NCBI GenBank assembly: GCA_002189035.1
Contig: NEEC01000092.1
Span: 23,036 to 87,035, forward strand
Direction: 5' to 3'
Length of the DNA: 64,000 bases
Source: Utricularia gibba
Taxonomy: Eukaryota; Streptophyta; Magnoliopsida; Lamiales; Lentibulariaceae
Shown: positions 1 through 64,000 of the stretch, one piece after another
Layout: the number at the start of each line of letters is the position of its first letter
Position numbering within the stretch: position 1 is the first letter of the stretch
Translations under genes and position numbers: made by a program
The notes under the pieces: generated by a model
What the model was told of the DNA's origin: nothing
Databases searched by the model: none
The model's input: only the letters and a program-made list of their open reading frames with translations

Positions 1-3000
1 AAGAATGCGATTGAGAAAGCCATTTTGGGTGCTCATGACATCCTAACTTCAATAAATGCATTACGATTTCGTCGAGTAGGACCTGATGTGGCAAAGGAGT
101 CTGACCGAACCTTGGGTCTGAACGAAGTTCCCAACGACATCACCCGCCGAAAAACGACAAGCTTTTCCTTGAGAAACCATGTAGGCAGCCTATTAAAACC
201 CAACGTTAATAAATGCATCACGTTTTTTGCGGAGCTACAAATGACTATGGGCCGAGCCCGACTCGACCTTTTGCCGATACCGTGCCCCACTAGAGCGCCT
301 CCTCAAATACAAAGCATGCGATTGAGAAAACCATTTTGGGTGCTCATGAAATCCTAACTTCAATAACTGCATCACGATTTTCGTCGAGTAGGACCCGATG
401 TGGCAAAGGAGTCAGACCGAACCTTGGGTCAGAACGAAGTTCCAAAAGACATCACCGCCAAAAACGACAAGCTTTTCCTTGAGAAACCATTGAGGCGGCC
501 TATTAAAACCAACCGTTAATAAATGCATCAAGTTTTTTGCCGAGCTACAAATGACTATGGGCCCGAGCTCGACTCGACCTCCTGCTCGATACCGTTGCCC
601 CACGAGAGTGCCTATCAAATATAAAGCATGCGGTTGAGAAAACATTTTGGGTGCTCATGATATCCTAACTTCAATAACTGCATCACGATTTTCGTCGAGT
701 AGGACCGATGGCAAAGGAGTCAGACAGAACCTTGGGTCTGAACGAAGTTCCCAACGACATCACCGCCGAAAAACGACAAGCTTTTCTTTGAGAAACCCAT
801 TGAGGCGGCCTATTAAAACCAACCGTTAATAAATGCATCAAGTTTTTTGCCGAGCTACAAATGACTATGGCCCGAGCTCGACTCGACCTCCTGCTCGATA
901 CCGTTGCCCCACGAGAGTGCCTTATCAAATAAAGCATGCGATTGAGAAAACCATTTTGGGTGCTCATGACATCCTAACTTCAATAAATGCATCACGATTT
1001 CGTCGAGTAGGACCGATGTGGCAAAGGAGTCAGACCGAACCTTGGGTCTGAACGAAGTTCCCAACGACATCACCCGCGAAAAACGACAAGCTTTTCCTTG
1101 AGAAACCATGTAGGCAGCCTATTAAAACCAACGTTAATAAATGCATCAAGTTTTTTGCGGAGCTACAAATGACTATGGGCCCGAGCCCGACTCGACCTTT
1201 TGCCGATACCGTTGCCCCACGAGAGCGCCTTATCAAATATAAAGCATGCGATTGAGAAAACCATTTTGGGTGCTCATGAAATCCTAACTTCAATAACTGC
1301 ATTACGATTTTCGTCGAGTAGGACCTGATGTGGCAAAGGAGTCAGACAGAACCTTGGGTCTGAACGAAGTTCCCAACGACATCACCCGCCAAAAACGACA
1401 AGCTTTTCCTTGAGAAACCCATTGAGGCGGCCTATTAAAACCAACGTTAATAAATGCATCAAGTTTTTTGCCGAGCTACAAATGACTATGGGCCGAGCTC
1501 GACTCGACCTCCTGCTCGATACCGTGCCCACGAGAGTGCCTTATCAAATATAAAGAATGCGATTGAGAAAACATTTTGGGTGCTCATGACATCCTAACTT
1601 CAATAACTGCATTACGATTTCGTCGAGTAGGACCTGATGTGGCAAAGGAGTCTGACCGAACCTTGGGTCTGAACGAAGTTCACAACGACATCACCCGCCG
1701 AAAAACGACAAGCTTTTCCTTGAGAAACCATGTAGGCAGCCTATTAAAACCAACGTTAATAAATGCATCAAGTTTTTTGCGGAGCTACAAATGACTATGG
1801 GACCGAGCCCGACTCGACCTTTTGCCGATACCGTGCCCACTAGAGCGCCTCCTCAAATACAAAGCATGCGATTGAGAAACCATTTTGGGTGCTCATGAAA
1901 TCCTAACTTCAATAACTGCATCGATTTTCGTCGAGTAGGACCGATGTGGCAAAGGAGTCAGACAGAACCTTGGGTCTGAACGAAGTTCCCAACGACATCA
2001 CCGCCAAAAACGACAAGCTTTTCCTTGAGAAACCATTGAGGCGGCCTATTAAAACCAACCGTTATAAATGCATCAAGTTTTTTGCCGAGCTACAAATGAC
2101 TATGGGCCCGAGCTCGACTCGACCTCCTGCTCGATACCGTTGCCCCACGAGAGTGCCTTATCAAATATAAAGCATGCGATTGAGAAAACCATTTTGGGTG
2201 CTCATGACATCCTAACTTCAATAAATGCATTACGATTTTCGTCGAGTAGGACCTGATGTGGCAAAGGAGTCAGACCGAACCTTGGGTCTGAACGAAGTTC
2301 CCAACGACATCACCCGCCGAAAAACGACAAGCTTTTCCTTGAGAAACCATGTAGGCAGCCTATTAAAACCAACGTTAATAAATGCATCACGTTTTTTGCG
2401 GAGCTACAAATGACTATGGGACCGAGCCCGACTCGACCTTTTGCCCGATACCGTGCCCCACTAGAGCGCCTCCTCAAATACAAAGCATGCGATTGAGAAA
2501 ACCATTTTGGGTGCTCATGAAATCCTAACTTCAATAACTGCATCACGATTTCGTCGAGTAGGACCGATGTGGCAAAGGAGTCAGACAGAACCTTGGGTCT
2601 GAACGAAGTTCCCAACGACATCACCCGCCGAAAAACGACAAGCTTTTCCTTGAGAAACCATTGAGGCGGCCTATTAAAACCAACCGTTAATAAATGCATC
2701 AAGTTTTTTGCCGAGCTACAAATGACTATGGGCCCGAGCTCGACTCGACCTCCTGCTCGATACCGCCCCACGAGAGTGCCTTATCAAATATAAAGAATGC
2801 GATTGAGAAAACATTTTGGGTGCTCATGACATCCTAACTTCAATAAATGCATTACGATTTTCGTCGAGTAGGACCTGATGTGGCAAAGGAGTCTGACCGA
2901 ACCTTGGGTCTGAACGAAGTTCACAACGACATCACCCGCCGAAAAACGACAAGCTTTTCCTTGAGAAACCATGTAGGCAGCCTATTAAAACCCAACGTTA

Positions 3001-4880
3001 GTAAATGCATCACGTTTTTTGCGGAGCTACAAATGAGTATGGGACCGAGCCCGACTCGACCTTTTGCCGATACCGTGCCCCACTAGAGCGCCTCCTCAAA
3101 TACAAAGCATGCGATTGAGAAAACCATTTTGGGTGCTCATGAAATCCTAACTTCAATAACTGCATCACGATTTTCGTCGAGTAGGACCGATGTGGCAAAG
3201 GAGTCAGACAGAACCTTGGGTCTGAACGAAGTTCCCAACGACATCACCCGCCGAAAAACGACAAGCTTTTCCTTGAGAAACCATTGAGGCGGCCTATTAA
3301 AACCAACCGTTAATAAATGCATCAAGTTTTTTGCCGAGCTACAAATGACTATGGGCCCGAGCTCGACTCGACCTCCTGCTCGATACCGTTGCCCCACGAG
3401 AGTGCCTTATCAAATATAAAAGATGCGATTGAGAAAACCATTTTGGGTGCTCATGACATCCTAACTTCAATAAATGCATTACGATTTCGTCGAGTAGGAC
3501 CTGATGTGGCAAAGGAGTCTGACCGAACCTTGGGTCTGAACGAAGTTCCCAACGACATCACCCGCCGAAAAACGACAAGCTTTTCCTTGAGAAACCATGT
3601 AGGCAGCCTATTAAAACCCAACGTTAGTAAATGCATCACGTTTTTTGCGGAGCTACAAATGAGTATGGGACCGAGCCCGACTCGACCTTTTGTCCGATAC
3701 CGTGCCCCACTAGAGCGCCTCCTCAAATACAAAGCATGCGATTGAGAAAACCATTTTGGGTGCTCATGAAATCCTAACTTCAATAACTGCATCACGATTT
3801 TCGTCGAGTAGGACCCGATGTGGCAAAGGAGTCAGACAGAACCTTGGGTCTGAACGAAGTTCCCAACGACATCACCGCCAAAAACGACAAGCTTTTCCTT
3901 GAGAAACCATTGAGGCAGCCTATTAAAACCAACCGTTAATAAATGCATCAAGTTTTTTGCCGAGCTACAAATGACTATGGGCCCGAGCTCGACTCGACCT
4001 CCTGCTCGATACCGTTGCCCCACGAGAGTGCCTTATCAAATATAAAGAATGCGATTGAGAAAACCATTTTGGGTGCTCATGACATCCTAACTTCAATAAA
4101 TGCATTCGATTTCGTCGAGTAGGACCGATGTGGCAAAGGAGTCTGACCGAACCTTGGGTCTGAACGAAGTTCCCAACGACATCACCCGCCGAAAAACGAC
4201 AAGCTTTTCCTTGAGAAACCATGTAGGCAGCCTATTAAAACCAACGTTAATAAATGCATCATTTTTTGCGGAGCTACAAATTATGGGCCGAGCCGACTCG
4301 ACCTTTTGCCGATACCGTGCCCCACGAGAGCGCCTCCTCAAATATAAAGCATGCGATTGAGAAAACCATTTTGGGTGCTCATGAATCCTAACTTCAATAA
4401 CTGCATCACGATTTCGTCGAGTAGGACCGATGTGGCAAAGGAGTCAGACAGAACCTTGGGTCTGAACGAAGTTCCCAACGACATCACCGCCAAAAACGAC
4501 AAGCTTTTCCTTGAGAAACCATTGAGGCGGCCTATTAAAACCAACGTTAATAAATGCATCAAGTTTTTTGCCGAGCTACAAATGACTATGGGCCCGAGCT
4601 CGACTCGACCTCCTGCTCGATACCGTTGCCCCACGAGAGTGCCTTATCAAATATAAAGCATGCGGTTGAGAAAACCATTTTGGGTGCTCATGAATCCTAA
4701 CTTCAATAAATGCATTACGATTTCGTCGAGTAGGACCTGATGTGGCAAAGGAGTCTGACCGAACCTTGGGTCTGAACGAAGTTCCAACGACATCACCCGC
4801 CGAAAAACGACAAGCTTTTCCTTGAGAAACCATGTAGGCAGCCTATTAAAACCCAACGTTAGTAAATGCATCACGTTTTT
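1..4880 (+). repeat. Domain 1: dimeric higher-order repeat (a-b), ~620 bp
   Basis: a-like and b/c-like monomers alternate. a-like copies start at 4, 935, 1556, 2173, 2796, 3422, 4048 and 4659. The five steps from 1556 to 4659 are 617, 623, 626, 626 and 611 bp, and 935 to 1556 is 621 bp. The alternation slips once near the left end, where 315 and 627 are both b/c-like. The a copies here mostly carry the CGATTTCG form rather than CGATTATCG. The intervening copies are a b/c blend: GAAATCC with CCCGATG or CCGATG, without the CCAGATTTGG and CCATGGGTC words of typical b monomers further right. The domain ends inside an a copy at about 4880. Confidence 0.88.
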
Positions 4881-5148
4881 TTTTCTAGAACATCAATCAC
4901 TTTTTCCTTGAGTATATTAAAACCAACGGGAGCTACGAGGGCCGACTCGACCGACCTTGCTTGCCCCACGAGAGTATCCATGTTGCCCCATGAATCCTAA
5001 CTTCAATAACTGCATCACGATTTTCGTCGAGTAGGACTGTGGCCTTGGGTCAAATACAACGAGCCGATGCCATTGAGGGCCTATTAAAACCAACGTTAAT
5101 AAATGCATCAAACCAAATTTTCGGGTCGCCGTCATGATCAATATAAAG
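4875..5148 (+). repeat. Abrupt left boundary of the disordered stretch
   Basis: The a monomer starting at 4659 is normal up to GCATCACG, then the T6 tract runs into nine or so T and the words TCTAGAACATCAATCAC and AGTATATTAAAACC, which do not continue the monomer. From there to 5148, short correct monomer words appear out of order. ACGAGGGCCGACTCGACCG comes before CATGAATCCTAACTTC, followed by pieces of the 3' half and the unfamiliar AATTTTCGGGTCGCCGTC near 5117. TCTAGAACATC and GGGTCGCCGTC are among the very few strings in the window that I cannot match to the monomer. Confidence 0.7.
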
Positions 5149-6479
5149 ATGCGGTTGAGAAAACCATTTTGGGTGCTCATGATAACTGCATTACGATTTT
5201 CGTCGAGTAGGACCCGGAGTGTGGCTGAACGAGGACATCACCCGCGAAAAACGACAAGCTTTTCCTTGAGAAACCATGTAGGCAGCCTATTAAAACCAAC
5301 GTTAATAAATGCATCAAGTTTTTTGCGGAGCTACAAATGACTATGGACCGAAGTTCAAAAGACAAATCATGCCCGCCCCTAACTTCAAAACGACACGAGC
5401 TTTTCCTTGGGTCTGAACGAAAAACGACATCACCGCCCAAAACGAAGCTTTTCCTTGAGAAACCCATTGCGGCCTATTAAAACCAACCGTTAATAAATGC
5501 ATCAAGTTTTTGCCGAGCTACAAATGACTATGGGCCCGAGCTCGACTCGACCTCCTGCTCGATACCGTTGCCCCACGAGAGTGAATGCTTATCTCAAATA
5601 ACTAAAGCATGCGTCGAGTTGGCAAAGGAGTCAGACCGAACCTTGGGTCTGAACGAAGTTTTGAGGTAGCTATTAAAACCCAACGTTAGTAAATGATACG
5701 TTTTTTGCCTAACTTCCGAGCCCGACTCGACCTTTTGCCGACCGTGCCCCATCACATGATTTTCGTCCTAACTTCAATAACTGCATCACGATTTTCGTCG
5801 AGTAGGACCCGATGTGGCAAAGGAGTCAGACCGAGAGACCTTGAGGAGGCGGCCTATTAAAACCAACGTTAATAAATGCATCAAGTTTTTTGCCGAGCTA
5901 CAAATGACTATGGGCCGAGCTCGACTCGACCTCCTGCTCGATACCGTTGCCCCACGAGAGTGCCTATCAAATATAAAGCATGCGGTTGAGAAAACCATTT
6001 TGGGTGCTCATGATATCCTAACTTCAATAACTGCATCACGATTTTCGTCGAGTAGGACCGAAACCATTGAAAGGAGCCTAGACATTGAACCTAACCAACC
6101 GTTAATGAACGAAGTCAACGTTTTTCACCGAGCGCCGAAAAACGACAATATTTTCCTTGAGAAACCGACTTCCTGAGGCGCCTATTAAAACCAACGTTGC
6201 GTTACGAAAGTGCATCATAGTTTTTATAAAGCATGCGGTTGAGAAAACCATTTTGGGTGCTCATGAATCCTAACTTCAATAAATCTATGGGCCGATTTCT
6301 CGACTCGTCCTGAGGACGATACCGTTGCCCCGCGAGAGTCAGACCGATACCTTGGGTATAAAGAATGATTGAGAAAACCCGATTTCACCCGGGTCCGAAA
6401 AACGACATGCTTTTCCTTGAGAAACCATTGTAGGCATTACGATAATCGTCGACCCAGTTACCTGCATGCACAAAGCGAG

Positions 6480-7105
6480 TCGAGCCGAACAACTTGGGTC
6501 AGAACGAAGTTCCAACGACATCACCCGCAAAAACGACAAGCTTTTCCTTGAGAAACCATGAGGCGGCCTATTAAAACCAACGTTAATAAATGCATCAAGT
6601 TTTTTGCGAGCTACAAATGACTATGGGCCCGAGCTGACTCGACCTTTGCCGATACCGTGCCCCACGAGAGTGCCTTATCAAATACAAGCATGCGGTTGAG
6701 AAAACCATTTTGGGTGCTCATGAATCCTAACTTCAATAACTGCATCACGATTTTCGTCGAGTAGGACCGATGTGGCAAAAGTCAGACCGAACCTTGGGTC
6801 CGAACGAAGTTCCCAACGACATCACCCGCCAAAACGACAAGCTTTTCCTTGAGAAACCATGTAGGCGCCTATTAAAACCAACGTTAATAAATGCATCAAG
6901 TTTTTTGCCGAGCTACAAATGACTATGGGCCCGAGCTCGACTCGACCTCCTGCTCGATACCGTTGCCCCACGAGAGTGCCTTATCAAATATAAAGCATGC
7001 GGTTGAGAAAACCATTTTGGGTGCTCATGAATCCTAACTTCAATAACTGCATCACGATTTTCGTCGAGTAGGACCGATGTGGCAAAGGAGTCAGACCGAA
7101 CCTTG
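6480..7105 (+). repeat. Best-preserved island within the disordered domain
   Basis: About two monomers read almost normally here. They have GAATCC rather than GATATCC, CCGATGTGG, GTCAGACCG and CATGAGGCGGCC or CATGTAGGCGCC junctions. They resemble the c/d-like copies of domain 3 more than the a-b dimers of domain 1, so the island belongs with sequence to its right. It loses register at about 7105, where GGGTCTTTCAGGTCTCACC appears. Confidence 0.7.
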
Positions 7106-7705
7106 GGTCTTTCAGGTCTCACCCGAAGAAAAACGACATCACCTTGAGAAACCATGCCAAAAACGCAGCCTATTTCCCAACCTTGAGAAAACCCATTGAG
7201 GTTTTTTGCGTAGCTACAAATGACTATGGGACCGAGCCCGACTCGACCTTTTGCCGATACCGTGCCCCACTAGAGCGCCTCCTCAAATATAAAGCATGCG
7301 ATTGAGAAAACCATTTTGGGTGCTCATGAATCCTAACTTCAATAACTGCATCACGATTTTCGTCGAGTAGGACCCATGTGGCAAAGGGGCCGAGACAGAA
7401 CCTTGGGTCTGACCGAAGACCTTGCCGATACAACGATCAAATCATGCGGTTGAGAAAACCGCCATGAAAACTTCAATAACTGCATCACGATTTTCGTCGA
7501 GTAGGACCCGATGTGGCAAAGGAGTCAGACAGAACCTTGGGTCCGAACGAAACCGATTGAGAAAACCATTGCGGCCTATTAAAACCAACCGTTAATAAAT
7601 GCATCAAGTTTTTTGCCGAGCTACAAATGACTATGGGCCCGAGCTCGACTCGACCTCCTGCTCGATACCGTTGCCCCACGAGAGTGCCTTATCAAATATA
7701 AAGCA

Positions 7706-8640
7706 ATGCTCATGATTGATCACGAAGTAACCATTTTGGGTCCGAACGAAGTTCAACGACATCACCCGCCAAAAAACATCCTTGAGAAACTTCAGCCTAT
7801 TAAATGCATTACGATTGGGCCCGAGCTCGACTCGAGCTAGGCCCCACCCTGCATGTTGAGAAAACAATGAGGATTTTCGTCGAGTAGGACCGAACAGACC
7901 GAACCTTGGGTCTTCCAACGAATCGAAGACAAGCTTTTCCTTGAGAAACAAGGCAGCCTACCCAACGTCATCCCGAGCTACGACTAAAACGCTCGACCGT
8001 TGCCCCACGAGAGCTTTTCATGCGGTTGAGAAACCATGTGCTCAGGCAGATTTTCGTCGAGTATTGGCAAAAGTCCGAACAAACGTTAGTAAATGCCATC
8101 AGCCTATTAAAACCAACGTTAATTTCAAGTGCGGCTAGCTACAACTCGATCCTGATACCGTTGCCCCATGCATGCGGTTGAGAAAACCATTTTGGGTGCT
8201 CATGCCTAACGACACGATTTCGACCGATTTTGGGTCCGAAGTTCCCAACGTCACCCGCCCCACTTTTCCTTGAGAGCGCCTCCTCAAATACAAAGCATGG
8301 GCCGAGCCCGACTTTTTTGCCGATAACCGTGCTCCCACTCAGACGCGTCCTCCTCAAATATAAAAAACGCATGCCGAGCTATGAGAAACCATTTTGCGGT
8401 TGACTCATGACATATCCTAGACGTTCAAATAAACTGCTGATTCCACGATCACGATTTTCGTCGAGTAGGACCGAGATTTGGCAAACGCCGAGTCAGACCG
8501 AATTAAAACCATTTTGGGTCATGAACGAACGATTCTCGACAACAGACAGAACCTCACCGCATCACGAAAACGACAAGCTTTTCCTTGAGAAACCATTGAG
8601 GCCCTATTGAGGCGAGCCTGACTTAAAGACCAACGTTGAG
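7706..8640 (+). repeat. Most scrambled segment of the array
   Basis: No complete monomer can be traced for over 900 bases. Fragments such as AACCATTTTGGGT, TTTTCGTCGAGTA, TATTAAAACCAACG and CATGCGGTTGAGAAAACC are intact but come in the wrong order, some at shortened spacing and some repeated within 100 bases (CGATAACCGTG, CGATACCGTTG). Small insertions split known words, as in CATATCCTAGACGTTC near 8412, which corresponds to ATATCCTAACTTC. There is no sign of a gene or of a transposon terminus. Confidence 0.7.
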
Positions 8641-9450
8641 AAACCATTTTGGGTGCTCATGAATCCTAACTTCAATAAATGCATCAATCGTCGAGTAGGA
8701 CCTGTGTTTGCCGAAGCTACAAATGAAAAACTATGGGCCCGAGCTCGACTCGACCTCCTGCTCGATACCGTTGCCCCGAGAGCGCCGATTGATCAGACAT
8801 AACTTCAAAGCATGCGGTATGAGATCAACCGACCATTATTGAGGTGCTCCATGCATCAATCCTAACTTCAATAACTTGCATCACGGAGTTTTCTGTCGAG
8901 TAGGACCGATGTGGCAAAGGAGTCAGACCGAACCTTGGGTCAGAATCCAACGAAGTTCACAACGAACCCATTCACACGCCACAAAAAACGACCTTTTCGA
9001 GAAAACTCGGCCTATTAAAACCTTTTGCATCAAGTTTTTTGCGAGCTACCGTCGACTCGACCTCCTGCTCGATACCGTTGCCCCACGAGAGTGCCTTATC
9101 AAATATAAAGCATGCGGTTGAGAAATTTTTGCTCATGAATCCTAACTTCAATAATGCATCACGATTTTCGTCGAGTAGGACCCGATGTGGCAAAGGAGTC
9201 AGACCGAACCTTGGTCAGAACGAAGTTCCCAACGACATCACCCGCCCAAAAACGACAAGCTTTTCCTTGAGAAACCATGTAGGCGCCTATTAAAACCAAC
9301 GTTAATAAATGCATCAATCCGAGCTAACTTGGGCAGCTCGATAACCGTGCACGAGAGCGCTCACATGCGGTTGAGAAAACCATTTTGGGTGCTCATGAAT
9401 CCTAACTTCAATAACTGAGTAGTAGACCCGAGATTGGCAGAAGGAGACAT

Positions 9451-11768
9451 CAGAAAACGACAAGCTTTTCCTTGAGAAACCATGTAGGCGCCTATTAAAA
9501 CCAACGTTAATAAATGCATCAAGTTTTTTGCCGAGCTACAAATGACTATGGGCCCGACTCGACTCGACCTCCTGCTCGATACCGTTGCCCCACGAGAGTG
9601 CCTTATCAAATATAAAGCATGCGGTTGAGAAAACCATTTTGGGTGCTCATGAATCCTAACTTCAATAACTGCATCACGATTTTCGCGAGTAGGACCCGAT
9701 GTGGCAAAGGAGTCAGACCGAACCTTGGGTCCGAACGAAGTTCACAACGACATCACCCGCCCAAAAACACAAGCTTTTCCTTGAGAAACCATGAGGCAGC
9801 CTATTAAAACCCAACGTTAATAAATGCATCAAGTTTTTTGCCGAGCTACAAATGACTATGGGCCCGAGCTCGACTCGACCTGCTCGATACCGTTGCCCCA
9901 CGAGAGCGCCTTATCAAATATAAAGCATGCGGTTGAGAAAACCATTTTGGGTGCTCATGAATCCTAACTTCAATAACTGCATCACGATTTTCGTCGAGTA
10001 GGACCCGATGTGGCAAAGGAGTCAGACCGAACCTTGGGTCAGAACGAAGTTCACAACGACATCACCCGCCAAAACGACAAGCTTTTCCTTGAGAAAACCA
10101 TTGAGGCGGCCTATTAAAACCAACGTTAATAAATGCATCAAGTTTTTTGCCGAGCTACAAATGACTATGGGCCCGAGCTCGACTCGACCTCCTGCTCGAT
10201 ACCGTTGCCCCACGAGTGCCTTATCAAATATAAAGCATGCGGTTGAGAAAACCATTTTGGGTGCTCATGAATCCTAACTTCAATAACTGCATCACGATTT
10301 TCGTCGAGTAGGACCGATTGGCAAAGGAGTCAGACCGAACCTTGGGTCCGAACGAAGTTCCCAACGACATCACCCGCCCAAAAACGACAAGCTTTTCCTT
10401 GAGAAACCATTAGGCGCCTATTAAAACCAACGTTAATAAATGCATCAATTTTTTGCCGAGCTACAAATGACTATGGGCCCGAGCTCGACTCGACCTCCTG
10501 CTCGATACCGTTGCCCCACGAGAGCCTTATCAAATATAAAGCATGCGGTTGAGAAAACCATTTTGGGTGCTCATGAATCCTAACTTCAATAACTGCATCA
10601 CGATTTTCGTCGAGTAGGACCGATGTGGCAAAGGAGTCGACCGAACCTTGGTCAGAACGAAGTTCCAACGACATCACCGCCCAAAAACGACAAGCTTTTC
10701 CTTGAGAAACCATGAGGCAGCCTATTAAAACCAACGTTAATAAATGCATCAAGTTTTTTGCCGAGCTACAAATGACTATGGCCCGAGCCGACTCGACCTT
10801 TGCCGATACCGTGCCCCACGAGAGCGCCTATCAAATATAAAGCATGCGGTTGAGAAAACCATTTTGGGTGCTCATGAATCCTAACTTCAATAACTGCATC
10901 ACGATTTTCGTCGAGTAGGACCCGATTGGCAAAGGAGTGACAGAACCTTGGGTCGAACGAAGTTCCCAACGACATCACCGCCCAAAACGACAAGCTTTTC
11001 CTTGAGAAACCATTGAGGCGCCTATAAAACAACGTTAATAAATGCATCAAGTTTTTTGCCGAGCTACAAATGACTATGGGCCGAGCTCGACTCGACCTCC
11101 TGCTCGATACCGTTGCCCCACGAGAGCGCCTTATCAAATATAAAGCATGCGGTTGAGAAAACCATTTTGGGTGCTCATGATATCCTAACTTCAATAACTG
11201 CATCACGATTTTCGTCGAGTAGGACCCGATGTGGCAAAGGAGTCAGACCGAACCTTGGGTCCGAACGAAGTTCCAACGACATCACCCGCCCAAAAACGAC
11301 AAGCTTTTCCTTGAGAAACCATGTAGGCAGCCTATTAAAACCAACGTTAATAAATGCATCAAGTTTTTTGCCGAGCTACAAATGACTATGGGCCCGAGCT
11401 CGACTCGACCTCCTGCTCGATACCGTTGCCCCACGAGAGCGCCTTATCAAATATAAAGCATGCGGTTGAGAAAACCATTTTGGGTGCTCATGAATCCTAA
11501 CTTCAATAACTGCATCACGATTTTCGTCGAGTAGGACCCGATGTGGCAAAGGAGTCAGACCGAACCTTGGGTCCGAACGAAGTTCAAACGACATCACCCG
11601 CCCAAAAACGACAAGCTTTTCCTTGAGAAACATGTAGGCAGCCTATAAAACCAACGTTAATAAATGCATCAATTTTTTTGCCGAGCTACAAATGACTATG
11701 GGCCCGAGCTCGACTCGACCTCCTGCTCGATACCGTTGCCCCACGAGAGTGCCTTATCAAATATAAAG
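9451..11768 (+). repeat. Domain 3: near-uniform monomers without higher-order structure
   Basis: Regular spacing resumes after a deletion at about 9418-9450. Seven successive copies start at 9618, 9926, 10236, 10542, 10843, 11146 and 11459. All are c/d-like with AACTGCATCACG and mostly GAATCC (one less base than GATATCC). GTCAGACCG replaces GTCAGACAG in most, and the junction word varies between CATGTAGGCAGCC, CATGAGGCAGCC and CATTGAGGCGCC. I see no repeating order of variants. Copies at 10542 and 10843 are short (301 and 303 bp) because of several one-base losses. Confidence 0.8.
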
Positions 11769-12704
11769 CATGCGGTTGAGAAAACCATTTTGGGTGCTCA
11801 TGACATCCTAACTTCAATAAATGCATTACGATTATCGTCGAGTAGGACCTGATGTGGCAAAGGAGTCTGACCGAACCTTGGGTCAGAACGAAGTTCCCAA
11901 CGACATCACCCGCCGAAAAACGACAAGCTTTTCCTTGAGAAACCATGTAGGCAGCCTATTAAAACCAACGTTAATAAATGCATCAATTTTTTGCGAGCTA
12001 CAAATGACTATGGGCCCGAGCTCGACTCGACCTCCTGCTCGATACCGTTGCCCCACGAGAGCGCCTCCTCAAATATAAAGCATGCGGTTGAGAAAACCAT
12101 TTTGGGTGCTCATGACATCCTAACTTCAATAAATGCATTACGATTATCGTCGAGTAGGACCTGATGTGGCAAAGGAGTCTGACCGAACCTTGGGTCTGAA
12201 CGAAGTTCCCAACGACATCACCCGCCGAAAAACGACAAGCTTTTCCTTGAGAAACCATGTAGGCAGCCTTTAAAACCCAACGTTAATAAATGCATCACGT
12301 TTTTTGCGGAGCTACAAATGGGGACCGAGCCCGACTCGACCTTTTGCCCGATACCGTGCCCCACTAGAGCGCCTCCTCAAATACAAAGCATGCGATTGAG
12401 AAAACCATTTTGGGTGCTCATGAAATCCTAACTTCAATAACTGCATCACGATTTTCGTCGAGTAGGACCAGATTTGGCAAAGGAGACAGACCGAACCATG
12501 GGTCAGAACGAAGTTCACAACGACATCACTCGCCCAAAAACGACAAGCTTTTCCTTGAGAAAACCATTGAGGCGGCCTATTAAAACCAACCGTTAATAAA
12601 TGCATCAAGTTTTTTGCCGAGCTACAAATGACTATGGGCCCGAGCTCGACTCGACCTCCTGCTCGATACCGTTGCCCCACGAGAGTGCCTTATCAAATAT
12701 AAAG
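11769..12704 (+). repeat. Entry block of the complex domain: a, a, b monomers
   Basis: Copies at 11769 and 12081 carry the a words AAATGCATTACGATTATCG and CCTGATG. The first keeps a c-like 3' half (GGGCCCGAGCTC, CCTCCTGCTC); the second has the a 3' half but lacks six bases in ACAAATGACTATGGG. The copy at 12389 is a full b monomer of 316 bp with CCAGATTTGG and CCATGGGTC. This is the first typical b monomer in the window. Confidence 0.8.
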
Positions 12705-52173: not shown

Positions 52174-54033
52174 CATGCGGTTGAGAAAACCATTTTGGGT
52201 GCTCATGATATCCTAACTTCAATAACTGCATCACGATTTCGTCGAGTAGGACCTGATGTGGCAAAGGAGTCAGACCGAACTTGGGTCTGAACGAAGTTCC
52301 AACGACATCACCCGCCGAAAAACGACAAGCTTTTCCTTGAGAAACCATGTAGGCAGCCTATTAAAACCAACGTTAGTAAATGCATCAGTTTTTTGCGGAG
52401 CTACAAATGAGTATGGGCCGAGCCCGACTCGACCTTTTGCCCGATACCGTGCCCCTAGAGCGCCTCAAATACAAAGCATGCGATTGAGAAAACCATTTTG
52501 GGTGCTCATGAATCCTAACTTCAATAACTGCATCACGATTTTTCGAGTAGGACCAGATTTGGCAAAGGAGACAGACCGAACCATGGGTCAGAACGAAGTT
52601 CACAACGACATCACTCGCCCAAAAACGACAAGCTTTTCCTTGAGAAAACCATTGAGGCGGCCTATTAAAACCAACGTTAATAAATGCATCAAGTTTTTTG
52701 CCGAGCTACAAATGACTATGGGCCCGAGCTCGACTCGACCTCCTGCTCGATACCGTTGCCCCACGAGAGTGCCTTATCAAATATAAAGCATGCGGTTGAG
52801 AAAACCATTTTGGGTGCTCATGATATCCTAACTTCAATAACTGCATCACGATTTTCGTCGAGTAGGACCCGATGTGGCAAAGGAGTCAGACAGAACCTTG
52901 GGTCCGAACGAAGTTCACAACGACATCACTCGCCAAAAACGACAAGCTTTTCCTTGAGAAACCATTGAGGCGGCCTATTAAAACCAACCGTTAATAAATG
53001 CATCAAGTTTTTTGCCGAGCTACAAATGACTATGGGCCCGAGCTCGACTCGACCTCCTGCTCGATACCGTTGCCCACGAGAGTGCCTTATCAAATATAAA
53101 GCATGCGGTTGAGAAAACCATTTTGGGTGCTCATGATATCCTAACTTCAATAACTGCATCACGATTTTCGTCGAGTAGGACCCGATGTGGCAAAGGAGTC
53201 AGACAGAACCTTGGGTCCGAACGAAGTTCCAACGACATCACCCCGCCCAAAAACGACAAGCTTTTCCTTGAGAAACCATTGTAGGCAGCCTATTAAAACC
53301 AACGTTAATAAATGCATCAATTTTTTTGCCGAGCTACAAATGACTATGGGCCCGAGCTCGACTCGACCTCCTGCTCGATACCGTTGCCCACGAGAGTGCC
53401 TTATCAAATATAAAGCATGCGGTTGAGAAAACCATTTTGGGTGCTCATGATATCCTAACTTCAATAACTGCATCACGATTTTCGTCGAGTAGGACCGATG
53501 TGGCAAAGGAGTCAGACAGAACCTTGGGTCCGAACGAAGTTCCCAACGACATCACCGCCCAAAACGACAAGCTTTTCCTTGAGAAACTATGTAGGCAGCC
53601 TAAAAACCAACGTTAATAAATGCATCAATTTTTTTGCCGAGCTACAAATGACTATGGGCCCGACTCGACTCGACCTCCTGCTCGATACCGTTGCCCCACG
53701 AGAGTGCCTTATCAAATATAAAGCATGCGGTTGAGAAAACCATTTTGGGTGCTCATGATATCCTAACTTCAATAACTGCATCACGATTTTCGTCGAGTAG
53801 GACCCGATGTGGCAAAGGAGTCAGACAGAACCTTGGGTCCGAACGAAGTTCACAACGACATCACTCGCCCAAAAACGACAAGCTTTTCCTTGAGAAACCC
53901 ATTGAGGCGGCCTATTAAAACCAACGTTAATAAATGCATCAAGTTTTTTGCCGAGCTACAAATGACTATGGGCCGAGCTCGACTCGACCTCCTGCTCGAT
54001 ACCGTTGCCCCGAGAGTGCCTTCAAATATAAAG
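52174..54033 (+). repeat. Domain 6 unit 7: a-b-c-d-d-c (1860 bp)
   Basis: Monomers start at 52174 (a-like with GATATCC and AACTGCATC but CCTGATG and an a 3' half), 52477 (b), 52789 (c), 53102 (d, with ATTGTAGGCAGCC), 53416 (d) and 53724 (c). The a copy is short (303 bp), ending CCCCTAGAGCGCCTC. Confidence 0.82.
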
Positions 54034-54653
54034 CATGCGATTGAGAAAACCATTTTGGGTGCTCATGACATCCTAACTTCAATAAAGCATTACGATTTTC
54101 GTCGAGTAGGACCTGATGTGGCAAAGGAGTCTGACCGAACCTTGGGTCTGAACGAAGTTCCCAACGACATCACCCGCCGAAAAACGACAAGCTTTTCCTT
54201 GAGAAACCATGTAGGCAGCCTATTAAAACCAACGTTAGTAAATGCATCAAGTTTTTTGCGAGCTACAAATGAGTATGGGACCGAGCCCGACTCGACCTTT
54301 CCCGATACCGTCCCCACTAGAGCGCCTCCTCAAATACAAAGCATGCGATTGAGAAAACCATTTTGGGTGCTCATGAATCCTAACTTCAATAACTGCATCA
54401 CGATTTTCGTCGAGTAGGACCAGATTTGGCAAAGGAGACAGACCGAACCATGGGTCAGAACGAAGTTCACAACGACATCACTCGCCCAAAAACGACAAGC
54501 TTTTCCTTGAGAAACCATTGAGGCGGCCTATTAAAACCAACCGTTAATAAATGCATCAAGTTTTTTGCCGAGCTACAAATGACTATGGGCCGAGCTCGAC
54601 TCGACCTCTGCTCGATACCGTTGCCCCACTAGAGCGCCTCCTCAAATATAAAG
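54034..54653 (+). repeat. Extra a-b dyad (620 bp)
   Basis: a at 54034 and b at 54342, directly followed by another a-b pair. The b copy ends CCACTAGAGCGCCTCCTC rather than the usual CCACGAGAGTGCC. That ending comes just before the GGTTGAAAAAACC a variant here and at 33493, 49374, 58046 and 62409. Confidence 0.83.
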
Positions 54654-56513
54654 CATGCGGTTGAAAAAACCATTTTGGGTGCTCATGACATCCTAACTTC
54701 AATAAATGCATCACGATTATCGTCGAGTAGGACCTGATGTGGCAAAGGAGTCTGACCGAACCTTGGGTCTGAACGAAGTTCCAACGACATCACCCGCCGA
54801 AAAACGACAAGCTTTTCCTTTAGAAACCATGTAGGCAGCCTATTAAAACCAACGTTAGTAAATGCATCACGTTTTTTGCGGAGCTACAAATGAGTATGGC
54901 CGAGCCCGACTCGACCTTTGCCCGATACCGTCCCCACTAGAGCGCCTCCTCAAATATAAAGCATGCGATTGAGAAAACCATTTTGGGTGCTCATGAAATC
55001 CTAACTTCAATAACTGCATCACGATTTTCGTCGAGTAGGACCAGATTGGCAAAGGAGTCAGACCGAACTGGGTCAGAACGAAGTTCACAACGACATCACT
55101 CGCCAAAAACGACAAGCTTTTCCTTGAGAAAACCATTGAGGCGGCCTATTAAAACCAACGTTAATGCATCAAGTTTTTTGCCGAGCTACAAATGACTATG
55201 GGCCCGAGCTCGACTCGACCTCCTGCTCGATACCGTTGCCCCACGAGAGTGCCTTATCAAATATAAAGCATGCGGTTGAGAAAACCATTTTGGGTGCTCA
55301 TGATATCCTAACTTCAATAACTGCATCACGATTTTTCGTCGAGTAGGACCGATGTGGCAAAGGAGTCAGACAGAACCTTGGGTCCGAACGAAGTTCACAA
55401 CGACATCACTCGCCCAAAAACGACAAGCTTTTCCTTGAGAAACCATTGAGGCGGCCTATTAAAACCAACCGTTAATAAATGCATCAAGTTTTTTGCCGAG
55501 CTACAAATGACTATGGGCCCGAGCTCGACTCGACCTCCTGCTCGATACCGTTGCCCCACGAGAGTGCCTTATCAAATATAAAGCATGCGGTTGAAAACCA
55601 TTTTGGGTGCTCATGATATCCTAACTTCAATAACTTCATCACGATTTTCGTCGAGTAGGACCCGATGTGGCAAAGGAGTCAGACAGAACCTTGGGTCGAA
55701 CGAAGTTCCCAACGACATCACCGCCCAAAAACGACAAGCTTTTCCTTGAGAAACTATGTAGGCAGCCTAAAAACCAACGTTAATAAATGCATCAATTTTT
55801 TTGCCGAGCTACAAATGACTATGGGCCCGAGCTCGACTCGACTCCTGCTCGATACCGTTGCCCACGAGAGTGCCTTATCAAATATAAAGCATGCGGTTGA
55901 GAAAACCATTTTGGGTGCTCATGATATCCTAACTTCAATAACTGCATCACGATTTTCGTCGAGTAGGACCCGATGTGGCAAAGGAGTCAGACAGAACCTT
56001 GGGTCCGAACGAAGTTCCCAACGACATCACCCGCCCAAAAACGACAAGCTTTCCCTTGAGAAACCATGTAGGCGCCTATTAAAACCAACGTTAATAAATG
56101 CATCAATTTTTTGCCGAGCTACAAATGACTATGGGCCCGAGCTCGACTCGACCTCCTGCTCGATACCGTTGCCCCACGAGAGTGCCTTATCAAATATAAA
56201 GCATGCGGTTGAGAAAACCATTTTGGGTGCTCATGATATCCTAACTTCAATAACTGCATCACGATTTTCGTCGAGTAGGACCCGATGTGGCAAAGGAGTC
56301 AGACAGAACCTTGGGTCCGAACGAAGTTCACAACGACATCACTCGCCAAAAACGACAAGCTTTTCCTTGAGAAACCCATTGAGGCGGCCTATTAAAACCA
56401 ACGTTAATAAATGCATCAAGTTTTTTGCCGAGCTACAAATGACTATGGGCCGAGCTCGACTCGACCTCCTGCTCGATACCGTTGCCCACGAGAGTGCCTT
56501 ATCAAATATAAAG
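54654..56513 (+). repeat. Domain 6 unit 8: a-b-c-d-d-c (1860 bp)
   Basis: Monomers start at 54654 (a variant, GGTTGAAAAAACC and TTCCTTTAGAAACC), 54962 (b), 55269 (c), 55584 (d, AACTTCATC), 55890 (d) and 56202 (c). The longest open frame in the window (321 codons, 55665-56630) lies across these copies and is only the repeat read in a stop-free frame. Confidence 0.84.
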
Positions 56514-58045
56514 AATGCGATTGAGAAAACCATTTTGGGTGCTCATGACATCCTAACTTCAATAAATGCATTACGATTTCGTCGAGTAGGACCGATGTGG
56601 CAAAGGAGTCTGACCGAACCTTGGGTCTGAACGAAGTTCCCAACGACATCACCCGCCGAAAAACGACAAGCTTTTCCTTGAGAAACCATGTAGGCAGCCT
56701 ATTAAAACCAACGTTAGTAAATGCATCACGTTTTTTGCCTACAAATGAGTATGGGCCGAGCCGACTCGACCTTTGCCCGATACCGTCCCCACTAGAGCGC
56801 CTCCTCAAATAAAGCATGCGATTGAGAAAACCATTTTGGGTGCTCATGAATCCTAACTTCAATAACTGCATCACGATTTTCGTCGAGTAGGACCAGATGG
56901 CAAAGGAGACAGACCGAACCATGGGTCAGAACGAAGTTCACAACGACATCACTCGCCCAAAAACGACAAGCTTTTCCTTGAGAAAACCATTGAGGCGGCC
57001 TATTAAAACCAACCGTTAATAAATGCATCAAGTTTTTTGCCGAGCTACAAATGACTATGGGCCCGAGCTCGACTCGACCTCCTGCTCGATACCGTTGCCC
57101 CACGAGAGCGCCTTATCAAATATAAAGCATGCGGTTGAGAAAACCATTTTGGGTGCTCATGATATCCTAACTTCAATAACTGCATCACGATTTCGTCGAG
57201 TAGGACCCGATGTGGCAAAGGAGTCAGACAGAACCTTGGGTCGAACGAAGTTCAACGACATCACCCGCCCAAAAACGACAAGCTTTTCCTTGAGAAACCA
57301 TGTAGGCGCCTATTAAAACCAACGTTAATAAATGCATCAATTTTTTGCCGAGCTACAAATGACTATGGGCCCGAGCTCGACTCGACCTCCTGCTCGATAC
57401 GTTGCCCCACGAGAGTGCCTTATCAAATATAAAGCATGCGGTTGAGAAAACCATTTTGGGTGCTCATGATATCCTAACTTCAATAACTGCATCACGATTT
57501 TCGTCGAGTAGGACCCGATGTGGCAAAGGAGTCAGACAGAACCTTGGGTCCGAACGAAGTTCCCAACGACATCACCGCCCAAAAACGACAAGCTTTTCCT
57601 TGAGAACCATGTAGGCAGCCTATAAAACCAACGTTAATAAATGCATCAATTTTTTTGCGAGCTACAAATGACTATGGGCCCGACTCGACTCGACCTCCTG
57701 CTCGATACCGTTGCCCCACGAGAGCGCCTTCAATATAAAGCATGCGGTTGAGAAAACCATTTTGGGTGCTCATGAATCCTAACTTCAATAACTGCATCAC
57801 GATTTTCGTCGAGTAGGACCGATGTGGCAAAGGAGTCAGACCGAACCTTGGGTCTGAACGAAGTTCCAACGACATCACCGCCAAAAACGACAAGCTTTTC
57901 CTTGAGAAACCATGAGGCAGCCTATTAAAACCCCGTTAATAAATGCATCAAGTTTTTTGCCGAGCTACAAATGACTATGGGCCCGAGCTCGACTCGACCT
58001 CCTGCTCGATACCGTTGCCCCACTAGAGCGCCTTCAAAATAAAAG
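56514..58045 (+). repeat. Domain 6 unit 9: five monomers a-b-d-d-x (1532 bp)
   Basis: Monomers start at 56514 (a), 56815 (b, following a short 301-bp a), 57128, 57435 and 57741. The c copy normally after b is missing. The last copy has ACTAGAGCGCCTTCAAAAT and leads into another GGTTGAAAAAACC a variant. Confidence 0.76.
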
Positions 58046-59917
58046 CATGCGGTTGAAAAAACCATTTTGGGTGCTCATGACATCCTAACTTCAATAATGC
58101 ATTACGATTATCGTCGAGTAGGACCTGATGTGGCAAAGGAGTCTGACCGAACCTTGGGTCTGAACGAAGTTCCAACGACATCACCCGCCGAAAAACGACA
58201 AGCTTTTCCTTGAGAAACCATGTAGGCAGCCTATTAAAACCAACGTTAGTAAATGCATCACGTTTTTTGCGGAGCTACAAATGAGTATGGGACCGAGCCC
58301 GACTCGACCTTTTGCCCGATACCGTGCCCCACTAGAGCGCCTCCTCAAATACAAAGCATGCGATTGAGAAAACCATTTTGGGTGCTCATGAAATCCTAAC
58401 TTCAATAACTGCATCACGATTTTCGTCGAGTAGGACCAGATTTGGCAAAGGAGACAGACCGAACCATGGGTCAGAACGAAGTTCACAACGACATCACTCG
58501 CCCAAAAACGACAAGCTTTTCCTTGAGAAAACCATTGAGGCGGCCTATTAAAACCAACCGTTAATAAATGCATCAAGTTTTTTGCCGAGCTACAAATGAC
58601 TATGGGCCGAGCTCGACTCGACCTCCTGCTCGATACCGTTGCCCACGAGAGTGCCTTATCAAATATAAAGCATGCGGTTGAGAAAACCATTTTGGGTGCT
58701 CATGATATCCTAACTTCAATAACTGCATCACGATTTTCGTCGAGTAGGACCCGATGTGGCAAAGGAGTCAGACAGAACCTTGGGTCCGAACGAAGTTCAC
58801 AACGACATCACTCGCCCAAAAACGACAAGCTTTTCCTTGAGAAACCATTGAGGCGGCCTATTAAAACCAACCGTTAATAAATGCATCAAGTTTTTTGCCG
58901 AGCTACAAATGACTATGGCCCGAGCTCGACTCGACCTCCTGCTCGATACCGTTGCCCCACGAGAGTGCCTTATCAAATATAAAGCATGCGGTTGAGAAAA
59001 CCATTTTGGGTGCTCATGATATCCTAACTTCAATAACTGCATCACGATTTTCGTCGAGTAGGACCCGATGTGGCAAAGGAGTCAGACAAACCTTGGGTCC
59101 GAACGAAGTTCCAACGACATCACCGCCCAAAAACGACAAGCTTTTCCTTGAGAAACCATGTAGGCAGCCTATAAAACCAACGTTAATAAATGCATCAATT
59201 TTTTTTGCCGAGCTACAAATGACTATGGGCCCGAGCTCGACTCGACCTCCTGCTCGATACCGTTGCCCCACGAGAGTGCCTTATCAAATATAAAGCATGC
59301 GGTTGAGAAAACCATTTTGGGTGCTCATGATATCCTAACTTCAATAACTTCATCACGATTTTCGTCGAGTAGGACCGATGTGGCAAAGGAGTCAGACAGA
59401 ACCTTGGGTCCGAACGAAGTTCCAACGACATCACCCGCCAAAAACGACAAGCTTTTCCTTGAGAAACTATGTAGGCAGCCTATTAAAACCAACGTTAATA
59501 AATGCATCAATTTTTTTGCCGAGCTACAAATGACTATGGGCCCGAGCTCGACTCGACCTCCTGCTCGATACCGTTGCCCCACGAGAGTGCCTTATCAAAT
59601 ATAAAGCATGCGGTTGAGAAAACATTTTGGGTGCTCATGATATCCTAACTTCAATAACTGCATCACGATTTTCGTCGAGTAGGACCCGATGTGGCAAAGG
59701 AGTCAGACAGAACCTTGGGTCCGAACGAAGTTCACAACGACATCACCGCCCAAAAACGACAAGCTTTTCCTTGAGAAACCCATTGAGGCGGCCTATTAAA
59801 ACCAACGTTAATAAATGCATCAAGTTTTTTGCCGAGCTACAAATGACTATGGGCGAGCTCGACTCGACCTCCTGCTCGATACCGTTGCCCCACGAGAGTG
59901 CCTTATCAAATATAAAG
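58046..59917 (+). repeat. Domain 6 unit 10: a-b-c-d-d-c (1872 bp)
   Basis: Monomers start at 58046 (a variant with GGTTGAAAAAACC but normal TTCCTTGAGAAACC), 58357 (b), 58671 (c), 58985, 59296 (AACTTCATC) and 59607 (c). The two middle copies have CATGTAGGCAGCC and CAATTTTTTTGCC tracts. Confidence 0.84.
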
Positions 59918-61785
59918 AATGCGATTGAGAAAACCATTTTGGGTGCTCATGACATCCTAACTTCAATAACTGCATCGATTTCGTCGAGTAGGACCTGATG
60001 TGGCAAAGGAGTCTGACCGAACCTTGGGTCTGAACGAAGTTCCCAACGACATCACCCGCCGAAAAACGACAAGCTTTTCCTTGAGAAACCATGTAGGCAG
60101 CCTATTAAAACCAACGTTAGTAAATGCATCACGTTTTTTGCGAGCTACAAATGAGTATGGGACCGAGCCCGACTCGACCTTTTGCCGATACCGTCCCCAC
60201 TAGAGCGCCTCCTCAAATACAAAGCATGCGATTGAGAAAACCATTTTGGGTGCTCATGAAATCCTAACTTCAATAACTGCATCACGATTTTCGTCGAGTA
60301 GGACCAGATTTGGCAAAGGAGACAGACGAAACCATGGGTCAGAACGAAGTTCACAACGACATCACTCGCCCAAAAACGACAAGCTTTTCCTTGAGAAACC
60401 ATTGAGGCGGCCTATTAAAACCAACCGTTAATAAATGCATCAAGTTTTTTGCCGAGCTACAAATGACTATGGGCCCGAGCTCGACTCGACCTCCTGCTCG
60501 ATACCGTTGCCCCACGAGAGTGCCTTATCAAATATAAAGCATGCGGTTGAGAAAACCATTTTGGGTGCTCATGATATCCTAACTTCAATAACTGCATCAC
60601 GATTTTCGTCGAGTAGGACCCGATGTGGCAAAGGAGTCAGACAGAACCTTGGGTCCGAACGAAGTTCACAACGACATCACTCGCCCAAAAACGACAAGCT
60701 TTTCCTTGAGAAAACCATTGAGGCGGCCTATTAAAACCAACGTTAATAAATGCATCAAGTTTTTTGCCGAGCTACAAATGACTATGGGCCCGAGCTCGAC
60801 TCGACCTCCTGCTCGATACCGTTGCCCCACGAGAGTGCCTTATCAAATATAAAGCATGCGGTTGAGAAAACCATTTTGGGTGCTCATGATATCCTAACTT
60901 CAATAACTGCATCACGATTTTCGTCGAGTAGGACCCGATGTGGCAAAGGAGTCAGACAGAACCTTGGGTCCGAACGAAGTTCACGACATCACCCGCCCAA
61001 AAACGACAAGCTTTTCCTTGAGAAACCATGTAGGCAGCCTATAAAACCAACGTTAATAAATGCATCAATTTTTTTGCCGAGCTACAAATGACTATGGGCC
61101 CGAGCTCGACTCGACCTCCTGCTCGATACCGTTGCCCCACGAGAGTGCCTTATCAAATATAAAGCATGCGGTTGAGAAAACCATTTTGGGTGCTCATGAT
61201 ATCCTAACTTCAATAACTGCATCACGATTTTCGTCGAGTAGGACCCGATGTGGCAAAGGAGTCAGACAGAACCTTGGGTCCGAACGAAGTTCCCAACGAC
61301 ATCACCGCCCAAAAACGACATGCTTTTCCTTGAGAACTATGTAGGCAGCCTAATAAAGCCGAACGTTAATAAATGCATCAATTTTTTTGCCGAGCTACAA
61401 ATGACTATGGCCCGACCTCGACTCGACCTCCTGCTCGATACCGTTGCCCACGAGAGTGCCTTATCAAATATAAAGCATGCGGTTGAGAAAACCATTTTGG
61501 TGCTCATGATATCCTAACTTCAATAACTGCATCACGATTTTCGTCGAGTAGGACCCGATGTGGCAAAGGAGTCAGACAGAACCTTGGGTCCGAACGAAGT
61601 TCACAACGACATCACCGCCCAAAAACGACAAGCTTTTCCTTGAGAAACCCATTGAGGCGGCCTATTAAAACAACGTTAATAAATGCATCAAGTTTTTTGC
61701 CGAGCTACAAATGACTATGGGCCGAGCTCGACTCGACCTCCTGCTCGATACCGTTGCCCACGAGAGTGCCTTATCAAATATAAAG
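59918..61785 (+). repeat. Domain 6 unit 11: a-b-c-d-d-c (1868 bp)
   Basis: Monomers start at 59918 (a with AACTGCATCG), 60225 (b), 60540 (c), 60855, 61165 (d with ACATGCTTTTCC and AATAAAGCCGAACG) and 61476 (c). The copy at 60855 has a c first half and a d second half. Confidence 0.84.
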
Positions 61786-62408
61786 AATGCGATTGAGAAA
61801 ACCATTTTGGGTGCTCATGACATCCTAACTTCAATAAATGCATTACGATTATCGTCGAGTAGGACCTGATGTGGCAAAGGAGTCTGACCGAACCTTGGGT
61901 CTGAACGAAGTTCCCAACGACATCACCCGCCGAAAAACGACAAGCTTTTCCTTGAGAAACCATGTAGGCAGCCTATTAAAACCCAACGTTAGTAAATGCA
62001 TCACGTTTTTTGCGAGCTACAAATGAGTATGGGACCGAGCCCGACTCGACCTTTTGCCCGATACCGTCCCCCACTAGAGCGCCTCCTCAAATACAAAGCA
62101 TGCGATTGAGAAAACATTTTGGGTGCTCATGAAATCCTAACTTCAATAACTGCATCACGATTTTCGTCGAGTAGGACCAGATTTGGCAAAGGAGACAGAC
62201 CGAACCATGGGTCAGAACGAAGTTCACAACGACATCACTCGCCCAAAAACGACAAGCTTTTCCTTGAGAAAACCATTGAGGCGCCTATTAAAACCAACCG
62301 TTAATAAATGCATCAAGTTTTTTGCCGAGCTACAAATGACTATGGCCGAGCTCGACTCGACCTCCTGCTCGATACCGTTGCCCCACTAGAGCGCCTTCAA
62401 ATATAAAG
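61786..62408 (+). repeat. Extra a-b dyad (623 bp)
   Basis: a at 61786 and b at 62099, followed at once by the a variant with GGTTGAAAAAACC. The b copy ends CCACTAGAGCGCCTTC, as in the other dyads that precede this variant. Confidence 0.83.
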
Positions 62409-63950
62409 CATGCGGTTGAAAAAACCATTTTGGGTGCTCATGACATCCTAACTTCAATAAATGCATTACGATTATCGTCGAGTAGGACCCGATGTGGCAA
62501 AGGAGTCTGACCGAACCTTGGGTCTGAACGAAGTTCCCAACGACATCACCCGCCGAAAAACGACAAGCTTTTCCTTTAGAAACCATGTAGGCAGCCTATT
62601 AAAACCAACGTTAGTAAATGCATCACGTTTTTTGCGAGCTACAAATGAGTATGGGCCGAGCCGACTCGACCTTTTGCCGATACCGTGCCCCACGAGCCCT
62701 CCTCAAATACAAAGCATGCGATTGAGAAAACCATTTTGGGTGCTCATGAAATCCTAACTTCAATAACTGCATCACGATTTTCGTCGAGTAGGACCAGATT
62801 GGCAAAGGAGACAGACGAACCATGGGTCAGAACGAAGTTCACAACGACATCACTCGCCAAAAACGACAAGCTTTTCCTTGAGAAAACCATTGAGGCGGCC
62901 TATTAAAACCAACGTTAATAATGCATCAAGTTTTTTGCCGAGCTACAAATGACTATGGCCCGAGCTCGACTCGACCTCCTGCTCGATACCGTTGCCCCGA
63001 GAGTGCCTTATCAAATATAAAGCATGCGGTTGAGAAAACCATTTTGGGTGCTCATGATATCCTAACTTCAATAACTGCATCACGATTTTCGTCGAGTAGG
63101 ACCCGATGTGGCAAAGGAGTCAGACAACCTTGGGTCCGAACGAAGTTCACAACGACATCACCGCCCAAAAACGACAAGCTTTTCCTTGAGAAACCATGAG
63201 GCGGCCTATTAAAAAACCGTTAATAAATGCATCAAGTTTTTTGCCGAGCTACAAATGACTATGGGCCCGAGCTCGACTCGACCTCCTGCTCGATACCGTT
63301 GCCCCACGAGAGTGCCTTATCAAATATAAAGCATGCGGTTGAGAAAACCATTTTGGGTGCTCATGATATCCTAACTTCAATAACTGCATCACGATTTTCG
63401 TCGAGTAGGACCCGATGTGGCAAAGGAGTCAGACAACCTTGGGTCCGAACGAAGTTCACAACGACATCACTCGCCCAAAAACGACAAGCTTTTCCTTGAG
63501 AAACCATTGAGGCGGCCTATTAAAACCAACCGTTAATAAATGCATCAAGTTTTTTTGCCGAGCTACAAATGACTATGGGCCGAGCTCGACTCGACTCCTG
63601 CTCGATACCGTTGCCCACGAGAGTGCCTTATCAAATATAAAGCATGCGGTTGAGAAAACCATTTTGGGTGCTCATGATATCCTAACTTCAATAACTGCAT
63701 CACGATTTTCGTCGAGTAGGACCCGATGTGGCAAAGGAGTCAGACAGAACCTTGGGTCTGAACGAAGTTCACAACGACATCACCCGCCAAAAACGACAAG
63801 CTTTTCCTTGAGAAACCATTGAGGCGGCTATTAAAACCAACCGTTAATAAATGCATCAAGTTTTTTGCCGAGCTACAAATGACTATGGGCGAGCTCGACT
63901 CGACCTCCTGCTCGATACCGTTGCCCCAGAGTGCCTTATCAAATATAAAG
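62409..63950 (+). repeat. Domain 6 unit 12: a-b-c-c-c (1542 bp)
   Basis: Monomers start at 62409 (a variant, GGTTGAAAAAACC and TTCCTTTAGAAACC), 62715 (b), 63023, 63332 and 63643 (c). This returns to the 5-monomer composition of domain 5, including the a variant that opens the first domain 5 unit at 33493. Two c copies have CAGACAACC, a two-base loss. Confidence 0.82.
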
Positions 63951-64000
63951 ATGCGATTGAGAAAACCATTTGGGTGCTCATGACATCCTAACTTCAATAA
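63951..64000 (+). repeat. Partial a monomer cut by the window end
   Basis: AGATGCGATTGAG, GACATCC and AACTTCAATAA identify the start of a class a copy. The array clearly continues beyond the window on the right, and on the left too, since the window begins inside AAGAATGCG. Confidence 0.85.

What the first reader, a model, noticed from the sequence alone, without database searches (positions are those of the whole stretch)
1..64000. Several different higher-order repeat units sit side by side in one array
Within 64 kb the array changes from a 2-monomer unit (~620 bp) to disordered, to unordered, to 7- and 8-monomer units (~2.19 and ~2.50 kb), to a 5-monomer unit (~1.55 kb) and a 6-monomer unit (~1.87 kb). 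The a-b dyad is common to most of them. This looks like successive local amplifications built from a shared monomer pool. Class order was called from diagnostic words by eye.
Basis: seen in the sequence. Interest (0 to 1): 0.6.

Follow-up and report, generated by a model that had tools for sequence, protein, structure and literature searches.

The report
Patchwork satellite array in bladderwort genome
The window is one unbroken array of a 312-base satellite repeat in what is almost certainly the carnivorous plant Utricularia gibba, built as neighbouring blocks of different multi-repeat units; such patchworks are known from other centromere-type satellites, but this genome was reported to lack satellites at its putative centromeres.

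Summary
Confirmed, with corrections. The window is the last 64 kb of an 87,035-bp contig made wholly of one head-to-tail ~312-bp satellite. The 7- and 8-monomer units have only 2-3 copies each. The "6-monomer" block is a mixture of 5- to 8-monomer spacings. The "disordered" stretch (about 4.87-9.34 kb) is exact satellite words in jumbled order, most likely an assembly-consensus artefact. A further 5-monomer block lies just left of the window.

Context: assembly fingerprints fit Utricularia gibba (PacBio). About 8,060 copies (~2.5 Mb) are assembled. One telomere-bearing 3.70-Mb contig ends in at least 200 kb of the satellite; other arms end in an apparently unrelated ~340-bp family. Published work calls U. 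gibba's putative centromeres satellite-free, and contigs telomeric at both ends have no exact copy of either probe word. Mixed satellite and satellite-free centromeres is the interesting untested reading. The HOR patchwork itself is a known kind.

The parts
1..64000 (+). one continuous head-to-tail array of a ~312-bp satellite (SAT312); continues left for 23 kb to the contig start
1..4860 (+). 2-monomer unit (classes a-e), ~623 bp; the dyad block begins about 10 kb left of the window
4870..9340 (+). scrambled stretch: exact satellite words (median 13 bp) in jumbled order, deletion-rich; probable consensus artefact of noisy long reads
9400..20400 (+). unordered monomers, no clear higher-order period
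20416..26359 (+). 7-monomer unit (~2,188 bp): one short 5-monomer form (k c l g q) then two 7-monomer copies (21980-24170, 24171-26359), a third begins at 26360
26980..31977 (+). 8-monomer unit (~2,500 bp), two copies (i l g h m r a b; i f g h m r a *)
33494..38475 (+). 5-monomer unit (a c b b b, ~1,557 bp), three full copies and a partial fourth
43461..64000 (+). variable-length units on the theme a c b d d b; 6 monomers (~1,868 bp) commonest, cleanest at 58047-61786

Best explanation
A non-coding nuclear satellite (monomer ~312 bp, itself an old fusion of two ~156-bp half-units) whose array evolved by repeated local unequal exchange or segmental amplification of runs of 2 to 8 neighbouring monomers. 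Each event founded a block with its own higher-order unit, later ones overwriting parts of earlier ones, so several short HOR blocks now lie side by side. Shown: the blocks, shared classes, local similarity, array-specific subfamilies. Inferred: the exchange mechanism, and that the array lies at or beside a centromere. Organism, by assembly fingerprint: Utricularia gibba.
For: Class strings and periods; runs far above shuffles. Classes fall into four families: a/k; b,c,d,e,h,i,j,m; f/l; g. Classes b and d, which distinguish the 5- and 6-monomer units, differ by only 1.9%, as expected if one unit arose from the other by duplicating a monomer. Same-class monomers <5 kb apart differ less than those >25 kb apart (a 1.00 vs 1.20%, b 0.53 vs 0.74%, c 0.84 vs 1.24%). 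Other contigs of the satellite have other blocks: C213 a dyad, C37 a 4- to 5-monomer unit, C428 a repeated run of about a dozen monomers. No monomer of C431 has a counterpart within 1% in the sampled parts of C213 or in C428 (0 of 265), whereas half of C428's do in C213. Half-units are 65% identical over 146 alignment columns, z=10.8. Location: contig C213 starts with a telomere and ends in the satellite from ~3.48-3.49 Mb to 3.705 Mb; diverged copies stand at the ends of C402 and C414.
Against: The array lies wholly inside one contig of a noisy long-read assembly: within classes indel differences outnumber substitutions 7.0 to 3.1, one stretch is scrambled, and copy numbers of each block may be wrong by collapse or expansion. 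No CENH3, methylation or in situ data for this repeat; no CENP-B box. Some plant satellites with HORs are not centromeric (PMC12046899).
Confidence: 0.8

Rival explanations
1. The change of unit along the window is made by the assembler: reads from several different arrays were joined into one contig, so the blocks are not neighbours in the plant.
For: HGAP assembly from ~10-kb reads (PMC5793159); a scrambled stretch at 4.87-9.34 kb lies between the dyad and the unordered block; more than half of within-class differences are indels.
Against: Blocks on both sides share the same classes a to i, which have no close counterparts in C213 or C428; transitions such as 7- to 8-monomer run through intact shared monomers (k c i l g) with no scrambling.
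Confidence: 0.15
2. The array is an ordinary non-centromeric heterochromatic block (subtelomeric, knob or interstitial) on one or a few chromosomes.
For: No exact copy of the probe word on contigs C1-C33, which include two contigs telomeric at both ends; non-centromeric plant satellites can also carry HORs (PMC12046899).
Against: On C213 the array lies 3.5 Mb from the telomere, at the unassembled inner end of the contig; other telomere-bearing arms also end in satellites; array-specific homogenisation is the pattern reported for centromeric and not for non-centromeric satellites in Salicaceae (PMC12046899).
Confidence: 0.3
3. Each HOR block is maintained by selection for a protein that binds one monomer class at fixed spacing.
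For: Alternation of a-family and b-lineage monomers recurs in most blocks.
Against: Unit lengths vary freely from 2 to 8; no CENP-B box.
Confidence: 0.05

Closest known systems
Primate alpha satellite HOR arrays, especially the orangutan 'patchwork' of several HOR blocks (PMC12428378)
   Same: Head-to-tail monomers in distinct classes, several different HOR blocks side by side in one region, read as independent expansions
   Different: 312-bp monomer, not compared by sequence; blocks here have units of 2-8 monomers in few copies, small and weakly homogenised; no CENP-B box found
Populus Palv156 and other plant centromeric satellites with HORs (PMC12046899), Arabidopsis CEN178
   Same: Short local HORs, similarity falling with distance, array-specific homogenisation; the half-unit length of ~156 bp is nucleosome-sized
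   Different: No sequence comparison was made; centromere role here untested
Second tandem family of the same genome, SAT340 (336-356 bp; ends of C244, C451, C402)
   Same: Similar length, thousands of copies, stands at ends of large contigs, two of them telomere-bearing
   Different: No significant sequence similarity to SAT312; no half-unit structure detected

Membership tests
Satellite DNA with higher-order repeats | long head-to-tail tandem array of one monomer | tested here: met
Satellite DNA with higher-order repeats | monomers fall into classes recurring in fixed order, copies of the multi-monomer unit more alike than neighbouring monomers | tested here: met
   distances at the unit lag 2-4% versus 4-11% expected; runs beyond shuffles
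Satellite DNA with higher-order repeats | high copy number in the genome | tested here: met
   8,061 hits of one 19-mer with up to 1 mismatch, ~2.5 Mb
Centromeric satellite | binds CENH3 nucleosomes | not testable with these tools
   needs ChIP-seq or CUT&Tag
Centromeric satellite | lies between two chromosome arms | tested here: inconclusive
   one arm-to-array contig (C213) and diverged copies at ends of C402 and C414; no contig seen to span the array
Centromeric satellite | present on all or most chromosomes | tested here: inconclusive
   no exact probe word on C1-C33, including C3 and C4 which have telomeres at both ends; other arms end in SAT340; places of copies with mismatches were not listed
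Alpha-satellite-like (CENP-B box) satellite | CENP-B box | tested here: not met
   0 exact in the window
Utricularia gibba PacBio (HGAP) assembly | contig lengths, N50, telomere type | tested here: met
   C1 8.50 Mb; C451 6.82 Mb = 'Unitig_8 (6.8 Mb)' of PMC8333044; several contigs near the reported N50 of 3.4 Mb (PMC5793159); TTTAGGG telomeres. Name inferred, not read from a record

The most novel reading that the evidence does not exclude
Utricularia gibba, reported to have satellite-free putative centromeres, in fact has two large unrelated satellite families (312 and ~340 bp) that form the centromeres of part of its chromosomes, with HOR patchworks, while the fully assembled chromosomes have satellite-free centromeres: a minute plant genome with a mixed set of centromeres like that of potato or horse.
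Probability: 0.4. Interest if true: 0.65.

Novelty: new member of a known kind. Interest (0 to 1): 0.42.

Why it matters
HOR patchworks are known, so the block structure is another instance of a general process, here with small 2- to 8-monomer units that resemble early steps of HOR formation. The wider point is that a genome used as an example of extreme compaction, and described as lacking satellites at its putative centromeres (PMC8333044), holds about 2.5 Mb of one satellite and ~1.5 Mb of another, both found at the inner ends of unfinished chromosome arms. Which repeats carry CENH3 becomes a direct test.

Tried and rejected
Exact-base autocorrelation alone: swamped by indel noise, only 312 and its half 156 stand out clearly; replaced by alignment-based lags and class-specific words. 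Fuzzy-regex anchors: missed most monomers. A minimum-over-lags permutation test: weak for the dyad, replaced by single-lag tests. Rfam on the window and on contig ends: no hits, so no sign of rDNA, 5S or other RNA-gene arrays. Plasmid collection: no match. ORFs: only chance frames through the repeat. CENP-B box: none. Relation of SAT312 to SAT340: not significant. SSU rRNA search for organism naming failed technically. The 2017 genome paper itself is not held, so its satellite statement is cited through PMC8333044.

Full report
What is there. The window is bases 23,036-87,035 of an 87,035-base contig (C431) in a 100.09-Mb, 516-contig assembly. The whole contig, including the 23 kb left of the window, is one + strand head-to-tail satellite. 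Monomers average 309 bp in this noisy sequence, with a consensus of 313. The monomer is itself an old doubling: its two ~156-bp halves are 65% identical over 146 alignment columns (z=10.8 against shuffles).

Check of the finding. I cut 265 monomers from the contig with a profile, aligned them, and measured substitutions only, because indels are dominated by homopolymer-type noise. Average-linkage clustering at 2% gives 55 classes, 19 of them with two or more members. The class strings repeat. From left to right in contig order: a 5-monomer unit (a f g h j, left of the window); a dyad (a e) from about 10 kb left of the window to 4.8 kb inside it; a scrambled stretch; unordered monomers; a 7-monomer unit; an 8-monomer unit; a 5-monomer unit (a c b b b); and mixed units around a c b d d b. 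Permuting monomer order within each segment gives z from -3.7 to -6.9 for these lags, and no effect for the unordered stretch at lag 2. There are 258 monomers in lagged runs of three or more, against 4 in shuffles and 35 in block shuffles.

Corrections to the finding. The 7- and 8-monomer units exist as two to three and two copies only, so they are local segmental duplications and not long homogenised blocks. At 43-64 kb the spacing between successive a-class monomers varies; six monomers is only the commonest and cleanest at 58.0-61.8 kb. The dyad partner is class e on the left and class c on the right, which differ by 3.2%. The stretch at 4.87-9.34 kb is different in kind: 83% of it is covered by exact 10-mers of intact monomers, whereas a 20%-mutated control gives 55% and truly diverged copies at the end of C402 give 36%. 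Its exact blocks have a median length of 13 bp, against 81 in intact array, with forward jumps (46%) and backward jumps (25%) between them. Ordinary mutation does not do this; misaligned noisy reads in a tandem repeat would. I treat it as a probable consensus artefact; only raw reads can prove it.

Where it comes from. The name is inferred from these fingerprints. A 19-base word present in most monomers occurs 8,061 times with up to one mismatch, about 2.5 Mb of satellite. Listed exact matches begin at contig C34, so none lie on C1-C33, which include C3 and C4 with telomeres at both ends; matches with one mismatch were not listed by place. Contig C213 starts with a telomere and runs into the satellite between 3.48 and 3.49 Mb; every probe from there to its end at 3.705 Mb is satellite. 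Diverged copies (~28% different where measured) stand at one end each of C402 and C414. Two other telomere-bearing contigs end in a second family of 336-343 bp (C451, C244), related at ~70% over part of its length to a 356-bp repeat at the left end of C402; its probe word occurs 4,537 times with up to two mismatches. The two families show no significant similarity.

Mechanism. Monomers of C431 form their own subfamilies: none of 265 has a match within 1% in the sampled parts of C213 or in C428, whereas half of C428's monomers do in C213. The other contigs show their own higher-order units: a dyad in C213, a 4- to 5-monomer unit in C37, a repeated run of about a dozen monomers in C428. Within C431 near copies of a class are a little more alike than far ones. 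This fits repeated local unequal exchange or segmental amplification, each event taking a run of 2-8 neighbouring monomers. The mechanism is inferred from pattern; direction and timing of events are not resolved.

Known or new. Several HOR blocks side by side are described for orangutan centromeres as a patchwork of independent expansions (PMC12428378). HORs with chromosome-specific homogenisation are described for a 156-bp plant satellite, and HORs also for non-centromeric plant satellites (PMC12046899). So the structure is a new member of a known kind. The less expected point is context. PMC8333044 states that the putative centromeric regions of U. gibba lack satellite repeats, and suggests neo-centromeres. 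My data agree for the contigs that carry both telomeres, as far as exact probe words go, but show that unfinished arms end in large satellite arrays. Whether these are centromeres is untested.

Noticed in passing
G000 C244 right end (L052), C451 right end (L057), C402 left end (L068): A second tandem family (343, 336 and 356 bp, ~70-75% alike) at contig ends, two of the contigs telomere-bearing; 4,537 probe matches genome-wide; each contig carries its own variant.
   Followed up: partly
G000 C505 left end (L071) and C375 left end (L066): Further tandem repeats of 537 bp and 1,370 bp at contig ends, not related to either satellite by blastn; the 1,370-bp one matches part of a short repeat near C409's left end.
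   Followed up: no
window 4870-9340; also probes C213:3500001 and C213:3660001: Scrambled or fragmentary satellite stretches seem to recur in other contigs, consistent with a general consensus fault in satellite regions of this assembly.
   Followed up: partly
G000 contigs C1, C2, C409, C505 and C98 left end: Lengths are round multiples of 2,500 and C98 begins with exactly 2,500 N, so ends of these contigs look trimmed or withheld; missing right telomeres on C1 and C2 may be due to that.
   Followed up: no
window, monomer consensus: The ~312-bp monomer consists of two ~156-bp halves (65% identical), a nucleosome-sized older unit.
   Followed up: yes
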